Source: Clostridium sp. 'deep sea'
GTDB taxonomy: Bacteria; Bacillota; UBA994; PWPR01
Length of the DNA: 64,000 bases
Assembly: GCF_014931565.1 (NCBI RefSeq)
Contig: NZ_CP063353.1
Location: 2,418,001-2,482,000 of the forward strand
Direction of reading: 5' to 3'
Position 1 is the stretch's first letter, and every line of letters begins with the position of its first letter. The position numbers and the translations under genes are program-made. The notes below the pieces were generated by a model that was not told the origin of the DNA, made no database searches, and saw only the letters and a program-made list of their open reading frames with translations. Shown piece by piece: positions 7,810-56,896 of the stretch.

Positions 7810-10800
7810 TTAATTTTTAGCTAACTTTATTCCTGTTTCATAACCATTAAGGTTTATTATTTCTAAATTTTCATTTACTTCTTGCAGTGCATCAGCAAGT
7901 GTTTCTTGTTTAACCCACTCATTATATTCATGTAATGCTGTAGCAACTTCAGCAGTGGACTTAAAATAAATGCTGATTCTATCACTTACATCATAGCCAT
8001 TATTTTTACGCATTTGCTGAACTTTAGAAACAAACTCTCTAGCCAAACCTTCATTTATTAGCTGCTGGCTTAATTGTGTATCTAAAATTATAAACAAGTT
8101 GTTTTCCATGCTCACTGTAAAGCCTTCTCGAGCTGCCAAGTTGACTTGTATAAGTTCCTTATTTAACTTAACAACTGTATCCGCAACTTTAATTGTAGGT
8201 TCTTCACCATTCTCAAGGCTCATCGCAATTTCATATGCATTTAGTAGATTTAACTGTTTATTAAAAGCCCCTACATTTTTACCTAACATAGGTCCAGCTA
8301 CTCTAAAGTTTGGCTTTAAACTAAAACTCATGTATTGTGAAAGTTCGTTAGTAAATACCACTTTTTTCACATTGAGTTCTTCTTTAATTAAATCAACCAT
8401 ATCACCAATGAGGCTTTCATACTTTCCATCAACTAGTACCTGTGAAATTGGCTGGCGCACTTTAATTTTAACTGATTCACGACCAGATCTACCTAGTTTC
8501 ACTAAGTCTCTAACTAAATCCATTCTTTTTTCAGTTAATTCATTAATTAAACTACTGTTACTCTTAGGATAAGTACTTAAGTGTACTGACTGCTCTCCTG
8601 TTAAATTTTTATATAGCTCTTCAGCTAAAAATGGAGAAATAGGAGCCATAAGCTGACTAATACCCACTAAAACTTCATATGTTGTTTTATATACTGATTT
8701 TTTATCATTTGTAAGCTCTGTTGCCCAAAATCTGCGTCTATTCCTACGAATAAACCAGTTTGATAAATCTTCATTTACAAACTGCTGCAGTCTGCGAACC
8801 GCCTGAGTTAAATTATAATCATCCATTGCTTGATTTACATCTTTAACTAAATTATTATATTTAGAGATTATCCATCTATCAATCTCAGGACGATTTTCGA
8901 CCTTAATCTCAAATTCTCTAGGATTAATATTATCTGATTCAGCATAAAGAGCAAAGAATTTATATACATTTTTTAAGGTAGAAAAGTATTTACTGATAAC
9001 TTCTTTAACTGAGTCCTCATCAAAACGCTTTGGCAACCAAGGAACAGAACTATATAGTAAATACCAACGCAATACATCTGCACCGTATTTCTCAAACATT
9101 TGAAATGGGTCTACTGTATTACCTCTTGACTTAGACATTTTGCGTCCTTCATTATCAAGAATTAAATCATTTACTAAAACTCTTTTGTAAGACGCTTTAC
9201 CTGTCAAAAATACTGAAATTGCTAGTAATGAGTAAAACCAGCCTCGAGTTTGATCAATTCCTTCACTTATATAATCAGCTGGATATAATTTTTCGAAAAA
9301 CTTATCTTTATTTTCGAATGGATAATGATGTTGAGCAAATGGCATTGAACCGCTATCAAACCAGCAGTCAATTACTTCGCTAACACGGGTCATAGGTTTG
9401 CCACACTTTTCACATGTTAAATGAATATCATCGACATAAGGACGGTGTAGCTCTATACTTTCATCGATATCCTCAATAGCTCTCTCCACTAACTCTTTAC
9501 GTGAACCTATTGTATCAAAATGTCCACAATCACATCTCCATATGTTTAAAGGTGTTCCCCAATATCTACTGCGAGATAAAGCCCAGTCGTTTAAATTCTC
9601 TAACCAGTTACCAAATCTTTTTTCTCCAACGTAGGGTGGGTACCATTCAATTTGATTGTTGGCTTCAATTAGTTTATCCTGAATTTTAGTAATCTCAATA
9701 TACCAGCTTTTTCGGGCATAATACAGCAAAGGAGTTTTACATCTCCAGCAATGAGGGTAGTTATGTTCCATTCGCTGTTTACTATACATTTTACCTTCAG
9801 CACGCAAATACTTAATTATCTCTGGGTCAGCATCCATAACAAACATACCCTGCCATGGTGTTGCTGTATATTTACCGCTATTATCTACAGGCTGTAATAC
9901 AGGTAGGTTGTATCTACGTCCTGTTTCATAGTCATCTTGACCAAAGGCAGGCGCCGTATGAACAATACCAGTTCCATCAGATGTAGTTACATAATCTGCG
10001 ACTGTAACAAAGAATGCTTTTTTATCGGTCTTTAGAAATGGCATAAGTTGCTCATATTCTTTATACTCTAAATCTTTACCCTTAAAGGTCTCTAATACTT
10101 GAAAATCACCTTTTATCACATGAGAGGCTAAGTCTTTAGCTAAAATATATACTGTGTTATCTTCTTCTGACCGTACCTTAACATAATCTACATCAGCATT
10201 AACTGCTAAAGTAACGTTAGAAGCGAGTGTCCAAGGAGTAGTAGTCCAAGCTAAGAAATAAGCATCTTCGTCTTTAACTTTAAACTTGGCAACTACAGTA
10301 TCAGATTTAATTTCTTTATAACCCTGAGCAACCTCATGACTAGCTAAACCAGTACCGCAACGAGGGCAATAAGGTAAGATTTTATGTCCTTCATAAATAA
10401 AACCTTTTTTATGAAACTCGTTTAAAATCCACCACACTGATTCAATATAATTATTATCAAGAGTTATATATGGATCATCTAAATCAATTAAATAACCCAT
10501 TTCACGTGTCATTTTACGCCATAATTCCTCGTAACTAAAGACAGATTCTCGACACTTTTTATTAAACTCAGCTAACCCATATTTTTCTATATCTTGTTTG
10601 CTACTTAGCTTAAGCTGTTTTTCAACCTCTATTTCTACCGGCAAACCATGTGTATCCCAGCCGGCTTTACGTTTAACCTGATAACCCTGCATAGTTTTAT
10701 ATCTACAAACAGTATCTTTAAGGGTTCTTGAGATAACATGGTGGATACCAGGATGACCATTAGCTGTTGGAGGTCCTTCATAAAATACAAAACTCTCAGC

Positions 10801-10911
10801 ACCGTTTCTTTCAGTAATACTTTTTTCTAATAAATTAATTTCATCCCAATAATCAGCAACTCTTTGCTCTGTTTGATAAGCAGATTCATTTTTCAACTGC
10901 GGAAAAATCAT
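7810..10911 (-). CDS. ileS: Isoleucyl-tRNA synthetase, type 2 (eukaryote-like)
   Basis: Charges tRNA-Ile with isoleucine. The class I core shows the ATP motif as 'GHPGIHHV' (GxHH in place of HxGH) and 'KMSKS' in 'GRKMSKSRGN'. The CP1 editing domain is present ('WTTTPWTLASN', 'GTGIVHTAPAFGQDDYETG'), followed by a helical anticodon-binding domain and a long C-terminal extension. The length of about 1033 residues and the motif variant identify the IleRS2 branch, known for natural mupirocin insensitivity. Start choice: a GTG at 10920 lies inside the ribosome site AAAGAGGTGA, so the ATG at 10911 is the real start. A T-box regulates it. Confidence 0.96.
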   Translation of the reverse strand: MIFPQLKNESAYQTEQRVADYWDEINLLEKSITERNGAESFVFYEGPPTANGHPGIHHVISRTLKDTVCRYKTMQGYQVKRKAGWDTHGLPVEIEVEKQLKLSSKQDIEKYGLAEFNKKCRESVFSYEELWRKMTREMGYLIDLDDPYITLDNNYIESVWWILNEFHKKGFIYEGHKILPYCPRCGTGLASHEVAQGYKEIKSDTVVAKFKVKDEDAYFLAWTTTPWTLASNVTLAVNADVDYVKVRSEEDNTVYILAKDLASHVIKGDFQVLETFKGKDLEYKEYEQLMPFLKTDKKAFFVTVADYVTTSDGTGIVHTAPAFGQDDYETGRRYNLPVLQPVDNSGKYTATPWQGMFVMDADPEIIKYLRAEGKMYSKQRMEHNYPHCWRCKTPLLYYARKSWYIEITKIQDKLIEANNQIEWYPPYVGEKRFGNWLENLNDWALSRSRYWGTPLNIWRCDCGHFDTIGSRKELVERAIEDIDESIELHRPYVDDIHLTCEKCGKPMTRVSEVIDCWFDSGSMPFAQHHYPFENKDKFFEKLYPADYISEGIDQTRGWFYSLLAISVFLTGKASYKRVLVNDLILDNEGRKMSKSRGNTVDPFQMFEKYGADVLRWYLLYSSVPWLPKRFDEDSVKEVISKYFSTLKNVYKFFALYAESDNINPREFEIKVENRPEIDRWIISKYNNLVKDVNQAMDDYNLTQAVRRLQQFVNEDLSNWFIRRNRRRFWATELTNDKKSVYKTTYEVLVGISQLMAPISPFLAEELYKNLTGEQSVHLSTYPKSNSSLINELTEKRMDLVRDLVKLGRSGRESVKIKVRQPISQVLVDGKYESLIGDMVDLIKEELNVKKVVFTNELSQYMSFSLKPNFRVAGPMLGKNVGAFNKQLNLLNAYEIAMSLENGEEPTIKVADTVVKLNKELIQVNLAAREGFTVSMENNLFIILDTQLSQQLINEGLAREFVSKVQQMRKNNGYDVSDRISIYFKSTAEVATALHEYNEWVKQETLADALQEVNENLEIINLNGYETGIKLAKN

Positions 10912-10927
10912 TTTTATCACCTCTTTA

Positions 10928-11184
10928 AAATAAATAAATCCCTGAGTAATTTCTTACCCAGGGACGATAATAACCGCGGTACCACCCTAGTTCTAAACCT
11001 AATAATAAGTTTAGCTCTCTTAAATTTAACGCATTTTACGTATACTCTTACTAAAGTTCAGAATATAGGCTCCTAGGTGATTCCTATAAATTTGTGTAAG
11101 TTGCCTTACAGCCTAGAGCAACCTCTCTTCTACACTTCAAAATAGCATTCCTAATCTTAGCCTCTACTATATTAGATTAGAGAC
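10928..11184 (-). promoter_or_regulatory. T-box riboswitch leader of ileS
   Basis: The minus strand carries the T-box sequence AGGGTGGTACCGCGG (10988-10974), which pairs with the uncharged tRNA acceptor end. It is followed by a terminator helix (TCCCTGGGTAA with TTACTCAGGGA, 10963-10938) and TTTATTTATTTT. Upstream stems include a perfect TGTAAG-GCAA-CTTACA hairpin (11110-11095) inside a longer helix. An ATC triplet in the 3' internal loop of that helix (11081-11079) would fit an isoleucine specifier, but I cannot confirm the fold by eye. Uncharged tRNA-Ile should stabilise the antiterminator and switch ileS on. Confidence 0.93.
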
Positions 11185-20451: not shown

Positions 20452-22321
20452 ATCGAGTAGGAGGCTAATCATTAGTTGATTAGCCGACCTCTCACACCAC
20501 CGGACGTACGGATCCGTATCACGGCGGTTCAATAACCAAGCCTACTAATGTAGTAAGAATGCAGTGATAAGAGACCAGCTTTTGCTAGTCTCTTATTTGT
20601 TATCGTTTTATGGAGTATGGGACTTTTAGCTGTCCGCCATGCTCCCTTTCTAGTATTTCCATACTCGTATGCTTTCTGAGGAGGACACCCTAGTTTTGTT
20701 AAGTTCCGAATTTTAGTCCTTATCCTTTTCCATCTCCGCCAATATATCATTCTTATTCTTCGCCTTATCCATTGGTCTAGCTCCATTAAGAATTGCTTCA
20801 TATTTGCAAGTATGAAATAATTAATCCAACCTTGGCACATTCTTTTCAGTCTGATATACAAAGTTTTGATGTTTTGTACTTTTCGACTTGTTAACAGTGC
20901 CTTGATTTTCTCTTTGAGTTTCTTCTTGCTTTTCTGGTGCACTCTAAATTGCACACCATTAGCAGATATGTAAAAGGAGTACCCTAGAAATTTGGTCTTT
21001 CAGGGTCGACTAATTTTGCTTTTATCTCGATTGACGACAAGCTTTAATTCCTTTTCAAGAAATTTGGTTACATTCGTTAAGGTACGCTCTGCTGCTTTTC
21101 TACTTTTTACATAGATTGAACAGTCATCAGCGTATCTAACGAACTTATGCCCTCTTCTCTCTAGTTCCTTATCTAACTTGTCAAGCATTATATTGCTAAG
21201 CAATGGCGATAATGGACCTCCTTGTGGAACCCCTTGTCGAGTCTTTTCATATTTACCATCTATTACAACTCCTGATAGAAGATATTTCCTGATGAGTCTT
21301 AAAACTCTGCTATCTTCTATCTCTAGGTACATTTGATGCATAAGTTTGTTATGGTTGACTGTGTCAAAGTATGATGCTAAGTCTATATCTACTATCCACG
21401 TGTAACCTGCTTCTATATACCGTTTGCATTGTTGAAGTGCATCATGGGCACTACGCTCTGGTCTAAATCCATAGCTGTATTCTGAAAATTTCTCCTCAAA
21501 TATTGGCGATAGCACTTGATTAATGGCTTGTTGAATTACTCGGTCTATGACCGTTGGTATTCCTAGTTTTCTAGTCTTACCATTGTCTTTTGGTATTTCC
21601 ACTCTTCTTACTGGACTAGGCTTGTACGTCACTTCTAGCAGCTCTTGGGTGAGGTTTTCTAAGTACCTGAGATACCATTCTGAGAACTCAGAAACTTTCA
21701 TACCGTCTACCCCATGGCTTCCATTATTACTTTTAACATGACCATAAGCTTTCATCATATTCGGATACGATACCACTTCTTCCATCAGTTGATTTGTGTT
21801 TTGCTTTTGCTCTTGTTGAATCCCTTGAGCACTAACTGCTCTCTCATTACTTTTAAGTTCCACTTTATCCTCCTGAGATAAGCCCTCTTTCGAGGTTGTC
21901 TAGTTTTTTTTTCGTACTCTTAGGTCTCATAGTTTACAAAACTGTTATTGTTCAGCCCTTCCTGAAAAAAAAATAATTTCAGTACTATGACTTCTGCTGA
22001 CTTCTCTCATCCCCTCTGCTCATCACTGAGTAGCGTTTGGTTTAGGATGCGAGACCTCCCTGGGTAAGTCCACACTCTTTCTTTCCATATATCTGCCACA
22101 TTTACTAACACACCCTTCGGTTAGTACGGATTTTGTTTTGATTAGCAAACTCATCCAGTTTGCATTAGCCTCATGTGATTCGTGTTCCTCAGACCAGAAA
22201 TTTGCCTCCAACTTCCTTCAGATTCCTCCTCGCGAAGGACACCCTTGTTTTCAGCTAACGGCTATACTAACTTCACCGCTCGGGACTTTCACCCTATAGA
22301 TTGTGAATATGCCAGGCGCAC
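20452..22321 (-). mobile_element. Group II intron, full length (~1.87 kb)
   Basis: The minus strand begins with GTGCGCC at 22321, the conserved group II 5' end, followed by about 450 bases of structured RNA, the maturase frame, then domain V (starting GAACCGCCGT at 20530 and including GGTGGTGTGAGAGG) and domain VI (GGCTAATC...GATTAGCC stem). It ends CTACTCGAT at 20452, giving the usual AY end. The insertion lies 6 bases after a perfect hairpin that follows the flavoenzyme gene, a site type favoured by class C introns, but I leave the class open. It sits between genes and interrupts none. Confidence 0.88.
20529..21863 (-). pseudogene. ltrA: Group II intron reverse transcriptase/maturase with in-frame TGA
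   Basis: Reverse transcriptase blocks are clear: 'RKLGIPTVIDRVIQQAI', 'FSEYSYGFRPERSAHDAL', 'IVDIDLASYFDTVNH', 'RQGVPQGGPLSPLL' and the catalytic 'FVRYADDCSIYV'. After 'KSKISRP' a TGA (21000-21002) stops the frame. The same frame then continues with 'KTKFLGYSFYISANG', the maturase X domain and the GIIM domain ('GWINYFIL', 'RRIRMIYWRRWKRIRT'), ending at 20529. Relatives usually have Trp here (RPWKxKFLG), so TGG has become TGA. TGA is a normal stop in this genome (for example in the CvpA-like gene). A GTG start with AGGAGG upstream is intact. Confidence 0.85.
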
Positions 22322-54708: not shown

Positions 54709-54797
54709 TACTGTCCTCCTGAGTTAACATAATTTGTTTTACTATCTATTACTCAAAAAGCATAAAATTATGCTAAAAAAATGCAAAAATATTAGAA

Positions 54798-55766
54798 TTA
54801 CTTTAACAGCATGATGATACAGTGTTTGATAACACTTTGTATTGTATTATTAAAAGATGTTTTTTCGGTACAATTTTGCCACAAATCATACTCAAAAGTC
54901 AATCTTGTTAATGAATTTAAATAGCAAAAAATTTCTTTAAAATTAGAGCCTGTGCTACATAATTCGACCTTTAAGGGATAAATTAGCAATTTTTTGATAA
55001 TTAATACAGCTGAAATTGTTTTTGGTTTGAACAAATTATTTATACATTCATTGTTATAAATATAATGCGTTAAGTACAAAGAATTATGGGTATTTAGTGA
55101 TAAATTTTTACTTATATCAATGCTCTTATTGCTGTTGTTGCTAAGAATTAAATAAGCAAGCTCAAATGTGGAAATATTGTTTAATAAACTAGGCCAATCA
55201 CGATTATTGCATATTTGTAAAAAATCATATCTATAGTGTTTGTAATTAAAAGAAATATCTATAAAAGGTAGACTATTAAAATCAGAATAATTAATTAGCT
55301 TTATTTGATAGCCCTGAGCTCTAAAAATATTCTCTTTTGCTTTTAAAAAAGTATTTATTCTATATAATAAGCTATGATTTATGGTGTTATTGTTATATGT
55401 TATTTGCACTAGATTGGTTTTATCAGCTGGTTTTTGTAAAAAGCATTGTAGTTTATAAAGCAATTGGTAACAGGTATCATCTGTAATAATAAAATTAATA
55501 TACCCACTATCACCTTGTATTTTTTTAATTCTATTTAAAGGGTCATAAAACCTCTCAGCTAACACTTGACTAAGTTTGTGGACATTTATATTTAACTTAT
55601 TTGCTAGATTAAAACAAGTAGTACTAAAGATAAAGTCATCTGATACTGTAATGTTCCAATCTATACTACTTTTATTAGGACATTCTAAATTTGATTTGTA
55701 GCTTTTAAATGCTAAAGTTAATCCTTTACTTAAATACTCTATTAAAATTCTATGGGGTATATTCAT
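54798..55766 (-). CDS. Degenerate arginyl-tRNA synthetase-like protein
   Basis: A 322-residue protein that aligns with ArgRS at both ends. Residues 1-105 match the Add-1 N-terminal domain that reads the tRNA D-loop ('FSTTCFNLANKLNI', 'GDSGYINFII'). Residues 118-160 align with the HIGH segment: 'NHSLLYRINTFLKAKENIFR' then 'AQGY', so HIGH has become HSLL. The rest of the catalytic domain, with KMSK, is cut to about 40 residues. From about 215, 'IDISKNLSLNTHNSLYLTHY' and the following helices match the DALR anticodon-binding domain. Aminoacylation should be lost, but tRNA binding could remain. The ATG has AGGTGAT upstream; the frame is intact. Confidence 0.72.
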   Translation of the reverse strand: MNIPHRILIEYLSKGLTLAFKSYKSNLECPNKSSIDWNITVSDDFIFSTTCFNLANKLNINVHKLSQVLAERFYDPLNRIKKIQGDSGYINFIITDDTCYQLLYKLQCFLQKPADKTNLVQITYNNNTINHSLLYRINTFLKAKENIFRAQGYQIKLINYSDFNSLPFIDISFNYKHYRYDFLQICNNRDWPSLLNNISTFELAYLILSNNSNKSIDISKNLSLNTHNSLYLTHYIYNNECINNLFKPKTISAVLIIKKLLIYPLKVELCSTGSNFKEIFCYLNSLTRLTFEYDLWQNCTEKTSFNNTIQSVIKHCIIMLLK

Positions 55767-55897
55767 TTAATCACCTACTATTTTAGTGATATCAGAGTTT
55801 AATTAAAATTATACGTCACATATAACATATTTACAAAACGTTGTGAAGGATTTAATCACATTAAATCGAAGAATATATAGTTAGGGAGGGATTAAAA

Positions 55898-56896
55898 ATG
55901 TTATTAGATAAATTACCTAGGATACCGCTGGCTTTTATACCTACTCCACTTCAGAAAACAGAGCGATTGGCCCAGAAAATAGGATTAAAAAGTCTGTATA
56001 TTAAGAGAGATGATCAGACCGGTCTGGCTTTAGGTGGAAATAAAGTAAGAAAGCTTGAGTATTTATTAGCAGATGCTCAAAAAAATAATGCAGATATAAT
56101 TTTAACAGTAGGGGGACCCCAATCAAATCATTGTAGAATGACCGCAGCAGCAGCCCGTGCTTGTGGCTTTGAATGTGCCCTAATATTTGGTGGCTCTGAA
56201 ATTCAAGAAGTTCAGGGTAATATGGTTTTAGATAAACTTCTTAAAGCCAAATGGTATTTTTCAGGTGAGCAAGATAGAGATGTTAAAATGCAAGAAATAG
56301 CAGAAATGTACAGCAAGAAGGGCAAAAAGCCCTACATAATACCGTTAGGTGGTTCAAATGCTTTGGGCGCAATGGGTTATGTAAAAGCAGGACTAGAGTT
56401 AGCTCAGCAATGTAAGGAGCAAGACATAGATCCAGATTATATTTTTTGTGCCTCTGGCTCAGGTGGAACTCAAGCAGGATTAATTTTAGGCTGTCACTTA
56501 GGGGGATTAAGCTCTAGAGTTATTGGTATTAGTGTCTCTGGTTCTGCTGATGAATTAACCGAAAAAATTAATATGTTATTAGTTGAAATGGGTGCTAGCT
56601 TAGATGTAGATGTTAGCTGTTTGCATCCAGTTACTGTCTATGATGAGTTTGTGGGGGAGGGTTATGGTAGGCCAACAGAGTTATCCCAAAGAGCTCTAGA
56701 ATACATGGCAAGCGAAGAGGCTATTATTATAGACCCTGTTTACACAGCAAAAGGCTTTGCTGGTCTTATTGGCAAGCTAGAGCAAAATAAAATAACTAAA
56801 GATAGTACTGTAGTGTTTGTTCACACTGGTGGTATGCCGGCTTTGTTTGCTGATACAGATTTATATTGGAAACCTGATACAGACATTACACGATAA
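55898..56896 (+). CDS. dcyD: D-cysteine desulfhydrase / ACC deaminase family PLP enzyme
   Basis: A 332-residue fold-type II PLP enzyme. Lys49 in 'GLALGGNKVRKLEYLL' is the PLP lysine; 'GGPQSNHCRMTAAAA' holds the cofactor and 'CASGSGGTQAGL' the phosphate. The family includes D-cysteine desulfhydrase (D-Cys to pyruvate, sulfide and ammonia), ACC deaminase and L-cysteate lyase; the first is likeliest but not certain. GGGAGGG precedes the ATG. An ATC-hydrolase-family gene, another enzyme of cysteine-related chemistry, is 4.5 kb downstream. Confidence 0.85.
   Translation: MLLDKLPRIPLAFIPTPLQKTERLAQKIGLKSLYIKRDDQTGLALGGNKVRKLEYLLADAQKNNADIILTVGGPQSNHCRMTAAAARACGFECALIFGGSEIQEVQGNMVLDKLLKAKWYFSGEQDRDVKMQEIAEMYSKKGKKPYIIPLGGSNALGAMGYVKAGLELAQQCKEQDIDPDYIFCASGSGGTQAGLILGCHLGGLSSRVIGISVSGSADELTEKINMLLVEMGASLDVDVSCLHPVTVYDEFVGEGYGRPTELSQRALEYMASEEAIIIDPVYTAKGFAGLIGKLEQNKITKDSTVVFVHTGGMPALFADTDLYWKPDTDITR

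What the first reader, a model, noticed from the sequence alone, without database searches (positions are those of the whole stretch)
54798..55766. ArgRS-like protein that keeps tRNA-binding ends but has lost the catalytic signature, still upstream of the delta gene
The 322-residue product aligns with arginyl-tRNA synthetase over the N-terminal Add-1 domain and the C-terminal DALR domain. HIGH is replaced by HSLL, and the segment that should hold KMSK is shortened to about 40 residues (ArgRS is usually about 550 residues). The frame is open, with a good ribosome site, so it is not simple decay. Its place just upstream of an RNA polymerase delta gene matches the argS-rpoE neighbourhood of many Firmicutes. 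The ancestral argS locus may have been converted to a non-charging tRNA-binding protein, with the working argS elsewhere.
Basis: partly seen in the sequence, partly recalled or inferred. Interest (0 to 1): 0.85.

Follow-up and report, generated by a model that had tools for sequence, protein, structure and literature searches.

The report
Dead arginyl-tRNA synthetase relative beside rpoE
A gene next to an RNA polymerase subunit gene encodes a shrunken, catalytically dead relative of the enzyme that loads arginine onto tRNA; it is kept in all three sampled members of one bacterial family while a separate normal enzyme does the loading, so it probably survives as a tRNA-binding protein.

Summary
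The observation largely holds. The 322-aa ORF is on the MINUS strand (55766 to 54798), directly upstream of rpoE (delta). Its first ~158 residues are ArgRS-like: NCBIfam argS E 1.7e-6, profile-profile E 2.5e-11, and Foldseek hits to ArgRS N-domains from a model built only on three orthologs. The class I catalytic core is gone: no PF00750, HIGH or KMSK. The C-terminal DALR domain is likely but not proven; Pfam finds none and shuffle tests are mixed. A complete argS lies elsewhere on the single-contig genome, so this protein need not charge tRNA. Orthologs of 314-330 aa occupy the same dcyD / ORF / rpoE slot in the other two family genomes, all intact although only 24-29% identical (dcyD 65-70%, rpoE 46-58%). 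The tRNA-Arg A20-reading aromatic-x-Asn motif survives (YIN, YIN, HLN). In 12 other families of the phylum a full argS sits in this slot. Best reading: the old argS at the rpoE locus lost catalysis and is kept as a fast-evolving tRNA-Arg-binding protein; tRNA binding is inferred. Two DNA blocks at the ORF/rpoE junction are 88-97% identical to the sister genome: probable rpoE control signals.

The parts
54798..55766 (-). ArgRS-like ORF without a catalytic core, 322 aa
55422..55766 (-). residues 1-115: ArgRS N-terminal (Add-1) domain
55494..55502 (-). residues 89-91 Tyr-Ile-Asn, equivalent to E. coli Phe82-x-Asn84 that reads A20 of tRNA-Arg
   Evidence: alignment; residue roles from PMC8975779
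55296..55412 (-). residues 119-157: degenerate first half of the Rossmann fold; HIGH replaced (HSLL), following Arg136 kept
54801..55196 (-). residues 191-322: all-helical C-terminal part, probable DALR domain
   Evidence: not conclusive
55062..55085 (-). residues 228-235 NSLYLTHY, matching NPVYYVQY of ArgRS (N, Y, Y invariant in three orthologs)
55808..55836 (-). promoter-like TTGTAA-17-TATAAT upstream of the ORF
55770..55776 (-). ribosome site AGGTGAT
   Evidence: sequence
54865..54904 (-). DNA block inside the 3' end of the ORF, 88% identical to G001 (TTGACT-18-CAAAAT, promoter-like)
54736..54775 (-). DNA block in the gap before rpoE, 97% identical to G001, unique in the genome
54250..54708 (-). 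rpoE, RNA polymerase delta subunit, 152 aa
55898..56896 (+). divergent neighbour, D-cysteine desulfhydrase-like (dcyD) gene; name from own reading of the sequence, not searched
   Evidence: same place in G001 and G002

Best explanation
The ORF is the old argS of the argS-rpoE pair, from which the catalytic centre has been lost. After a second argS took over charging (inferred), the rpoE-linked copy lost HIGH, KMSK and most of the Rossmann fold (shown) but kept the N-terminal D-loop-reading domain with its aromatic-x-Asn pair (shown) and very probably the helical C-terminal anticodon-binding domain (likely, not proven). It is probably co-transcribed with rpoE (inferred from layout) and works as a non-charging tRNA-Arg-binding protein, for instance a chaperone, a specificity partner for a tRNA enzyme, or a sensor of free tRNA-Arg (inferred).
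For: Homology of residues 1-158 to ArgRS; the nine best structure hits are ArgRS, mostly its N-domain, from an MSA without any ArgRS. Full argS elsewhere in a single-contig genome. Same slot in all three family genomes. Intact frames of 314-330 aa where chance stop-free odds at that composition are 1e-9 to 1e-13; pN below pS in all pairs. N91, R136, G152, N228, Y235, L286 are kept in all three and in 44 of 44 ArgRS. A20 pocket: Y89-I90-N91 kept in window and G001, H-L-N in G002, roles from PMC8975779. A full argS lies under 0.4 kb upstream of rpoE in 14 genomes of 12 families of the phylum. Model with ArgRS rows in the MSA: pLDDT 77, pTM 0.75, 24 leading hits all ArgRS.
Against: DALR similarity is not significant in every test, and no family model reports it. 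The G001 protein is not basic (pI 7.06). The protein evolves very fast (24-29% identity; pN 0.50-0.57 against 0.56 for shuffled codons), so tRNA contacts outside the motif are mostly not conserved. The best-conserved protein block overlaps a DNA block kept at synonymous sites too (pS 0.31 against 0.78), so part of that conservation is not protein-level. The A3 model is biased by the ArgRS rows it was given.
Confidence: 0.5

Rival explanations
1. The protein keeps the ArgRS-derived fold but its present job does not involve tRNA: it acts through protein contacts, for example with the working ArgRS (as HisZ does with HisG, from own knowledge), with delta, or with RNA polymerase.
For: Very fast divergence with intact frames; near-neutral charge in G001; strict linkage to rpoE in three genomes.
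Against: The one motif that reads tRNA-Arg A20 is among the few residues kept; rpoE linkage is inherited from argS-rpoE order and so needs no functional tie.
Confidence: 0.22
2. A slowly dying argS: the frame is a remnant kept mainly because its 3' end and the gap hold rpoE control signals; the protein itself has no function.
For: Low G+C (25%, second lowest of 45 ORFs in the window), pN close to the shuffled-codon level, and two DNA blocks 88-97% identical at the ORF/rpoE junction.
Against: Three lineages with saturated synonymous sites all keep 314-330 codons open; control signals at the 3' end would not keep 270 upstream codons open; protein homology upstream of the block is still E 1e-20 between window and G001.
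Confidence: 0.15
3. A tRNA-Arg sensor in the operon: the protein, being encoded with delta, adjusts rpoE expression or delta activity to the level of uncharged tRNA-Arg.
For: Two-gene layout with an upstream promoter-like site and strongly conserved DNA just before rpoE.
Against: No direct evidence; the gap is not a confident RNA structure (z -0.8 and -1.6), no Rfam family is found there, and G002 has a different gap with its own TTGACA-17-TATAAA.
Confidence: 0.1

Closest known systems
Arginyl-tRNA synthetase (argS; TIGR00456, PF03485 + PF00750 + PF05746)
   Same: N-terminal Add-1 domain, order of parts, A20-reading aromatic-x-Asn, position upstream of rpoE as in many relatives
   Different: 322 instead of about 560 residues; no HIGH, no KMSK, no catalytic domain; cannot be expected to charge tRNA
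NrtL, ArgS-related anticodon-binding protein (NCBIfam NF045898, 327 positions)
   Same: Similar length and idea: an ArgRS relative of about 327 residues named for its anticodon-binding part
   Different: Window, G001 and G002 proteins do not match the NrtL model at E<=10; no paper naming NrtL was found; independent origin likely
DALRD3 (vertebrates; PMC7237682)
   Same: ArgRS-type anticodon-binding domain without charging activity, proposed to descend from a duplicated ArgRS that lost catalysis; binds tRNA-Arg(CCU/UCU) and guides METTL2 m3C methylation
   Different: Vertebrate, own N-terminal extension; the bacterial ORF lies in the argS slot and no partner enzyme is known

Membership tests
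Arginyl-tRNA synthetase | class I catalytic domain with HIGH and KMSK (PF00750) | tested here: not met
   no PF00750 hit at E<=10; HIGH columns read H-S-L-L, E-L-gap-gap, E-M-A-D in the three orthologs; KMSK region deleted
Arginyl-tRNA synthetase | N-terminal Add-1 domain (PF03485) | tested here: met
   Pfam E 0.0035 though below gathering score, profile-profile E 2.5e-11, Foldseek 1iq0 and 3gdz
Arginyl-tRNA synthetase | C-terminal DALR domain (PF05746) | tested here: inconclusive
   no Pfam hit; 6/2000 and 4/300 shuffles as good; 31/300 and 88/300 in other tests; N-x2-Y-x3-Y motif kept
Arginyl-tRNA synthetase | charges tRNA-Arg with arginine | not testable with these tools
   needs an enzyme assay; the lost active site makes it very unlikely
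NrtL (NF045898) | score above the curated cut-off of 340 bits | tested here: not met
   no hit at E<=10 for window, G001 or G002 protein; no genome among the relatives or in the phylum sample over the cut-off
DALRD3-like non-charging tRNA-Arg adaptor | binds tRNA-Arg and a tRNA-modifying enzyme | not testable with these tools
   works-like comparison only
RNA polymerase delta (neighbour gene) | TIGR04567 above cut-off | tested here: met
   45.4 bits against 42

The most novel reading that the evidence does not exclude
A bacterial counterpart of DALRD3: an ancestral argS turned in place into a non-charging tRNA-Arg-binding protein that, being expressed with RNA polymerase delta, ties tRNA-Arg status to transcription or guides a tRNA-modifying enzyme.
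Probability: 0.15. Interest if true: 0.8.

Novelty: new variant of a known kind. Interest (0 to 1): 0.5.

Why it matters
Dead relatives of tRNA synthetases that gained other jobs are known, but they usually appear as extra copies. Here the resident gene itself seems to have been displaced and recycled in its own operon, with a clear comparison across families: full argS next to rpoE, dead protein next to rpoE, or nothing. That makes the order of events (take-over by a second argS, loss of catalysis, retention) directly testable, and offers a bacterial case to compare with DALRD3.

Tried and rejected
Single-sequence search of genome contigs found nothing; the three-sequence profile found only the two known relatives. 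Phylum-wide search with the profile gave, beyond the family, only ordinary full-length ArgRS through their N-domains. NrtL as a family home was rejected. The tree of ArgRS types left the three dead proteins on the branch between the two types, with very long branches, so their parent type is unresolved; the NxxYxxxY motif and the profile-profile comparison (2.5e-11 against 5.6e-7) favour the NPVYY type, but the N-domain profile of the other type scored higher. The re-alignment shuffle test for DALR has no gap penalty and did not discriminate. The CTTTTGAGTA shared by the two DNA blocks is not rarer than chance in the window. No T-box, Rfam RNA or tRNA gene lies at the locus. The tRNA-Arg genes read (TCT, CCT, TCG) look ordinary.

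Full report
WHAT IS THERE. The ORF runs on the minus strand from 55766 to 54798, 322 codons; the plus strand is closed. It starts with a ribosome site, has a promoter-like TTGTAA-17-TATAAT about 40 nt upstream of the start codon, and is followed after 89 nt by rpoE on the same strand (TIGR04567 above cut-off). A dcyD-like gene is divergent at 55898; a lipoprotein-like gene converges from the other side (both named from own reading).

ARGRS HOMOLOGY. Pfam reports only Arg_tRNA_synt_N, below its gathering score; NCBIfam argS reaches E 1.7e-6 over residues 48-184. The same-genus protein (G001) gives argS E 2e-4. A three-ortholog profile matches a profile of 53 ArgRS at E 2.5e-11 over residues 1-158; the N-domain of window and G001 beats all 2000 shuffles, that of G002 does not (71 of 2000), while the HIGH-region stretch of G002 does (0 of 2000). 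AlphaFold2 on the three orthologs alone gives a fairly confident N-domain (block pLDDT up to 86) and a poor rest; its nine best PDB hits are ArgRS, including the isolated N-domain 3gdz at TM 0.66. The N-domain assignment is therefore safe.

WHAT IS LOST AND KEPT. There is no PF00750 match. In the alignment with 44 ArgRS the HIGH columns read H-S-L-L in the window and are equally lost in both orthologs; the span from the middle of the Rossmann fold to just after KMSK is missing. Kept in all three and in 44 of 44 ArgRS: N91, R136, G152, N228, Y235, L286. Y89 and N91 are the equivalents of E. coli F82 and N84, which stack on and hold A20, the main arginine identity base (PMC8975779; PMC9976931). 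The window and G001 have Y-I-N, G002 has H-L-N, the genome's working ArgRS has Y-V-N.

THE C-TERMINAL PART. Residues 191-322 align collinearly with the end of the catalytic domain plus DALR in every MAFFT set-up tried, including N-x2-Y-x3-Y against NPVYYVQY, and are predicted mostly helical with or without ArgRS rows. With ArgRS rows the whole model reaches pLDDT 77 and pTM 0.75 and all 24 leading hits are ArgRS, but that model is helped by the rows. Statistics are mixed: 6 of 2000 shuffles for the window sequence, 250 and 374 of 2000 for the orthologs, 4 of 300 for window plus G001 and 31 of 300 for all three, 88 of 300 in a re-alignment test without gap penalty. I call DALR likely, not shown.

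THE WORKING ENZYME. The genome is one contig of 3.83 Mb with one full argS at 2053033-2054430, with all three Pfam domains and HVGHLR. G001 also has a full one, and G002 one on a short contig, both on other contigs than rpoE.

THE LOCUS IN RELATIVES. G001 and G002, the only other held genomes of the family, have a 330-aa and a 314-aa ORF in the same slot between dcyD and rpoE. The two other families of the class have rpoE upstream of pyrG without such an ORF, and a full argS elsewhere. In the phylum, 14 genomes of 12 families carry argS less than 0.4 kb upstream of rpoE (counted). The class members whose argS could be read all have the GETGPYLQY type, whereas the rpoE-adjacent ones read here are of the NPVYYVQY type. 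The simplest story is replacement by a second argS in the class ancestor, then loss of the old copy in two families and its conversion in the third; the tree is too poor to prove the parent type.

IS IT A LIVING GENE. The three proteins are 24-29% identical while dcyD is 65-70%, rpoE 46-58% and the full argS 67%. Synonymous sites are saturated in all genes (pS 0.73-0.87), so without selection the frames would have closed; stop-free odds are 1e-9 to 1e-13. pN (0.50-0.57) is below pS but near the level of shuffled-codon alignments (0.56), so selection on sequence is weak or narrow. Homology upstream of the DNA block is E 1e-20 for window against G001, and E 6e-6 overall for window against G002.

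A SECOND, UNASKED FINDING. Two stretches at the junction with rpoE are nearly identical between window and G001 at DNA level, against a locus mean of 46%: 54904-54865 inside the ORF (88%) and 54775-54736 in the gap (97%). The first holds TTGACT-18-CAAAAT and is conserved at synonymous sites too (pS 0.31); the second is unique in the genome. They are probably the rpoE promoter and leader. G002 instead has TTGACA-17-TATAAA just after the ORF. The best-conserved protein block, YLNxLTxLTFEYxLWQNC, lies on the first of them, so it must not be read as protein conservation alone.

HOW IT MOST LIKELY WORKS. Shown: an ArgRS-derived protein with the D-loop-reading domain and no active site, kept next to rpoE. 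Inferred: it binds tRNA-Arg through the A20 pocket and a degenerate anticodon-binding domain, without charging it. What it then does (chaperone; guide for a tRNA enzyme as DALRD3 does for METTL2, PMC7237682; or sensor) is open. Confidence 0.5 for a tRNA-Arg-binding role.

Noticed in passing
window 54736-54775 and 54865-54904 (minus strand): Two DNA blocks 97% and 88% identical to the same-genus genome at the junction with rpoE, one inside the coding sequence; probable rpoE promoter and leader.
   Followed up: partly
L076 3940-4029 (G002): The gap before rpoE in the third genome lacks those blocks and has a consensus promoter TTGACA-17-TATAAA instead.
   Followed up: no
window 10957-11167 (minus strand): T-box leader upstream of an isoleucyl-tRNA synthetase-like gene (7810-10920; named from own reading).
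   Followed up: no
window 21955-22239 (minus strand): Group II intron domains D1-D4 (two Rfam matches).
   Followed up: no
L001 1162-2901 (G000 C1:2054083-2054430 for the domain): The DALR domain of the working ArgRS scores near the bottom of about 100 relatives (88 bits; G001 97, G002 103; most others above 105), so the charging enzyme's own anticodon domain is also divergent in this family.
   Followed up: no
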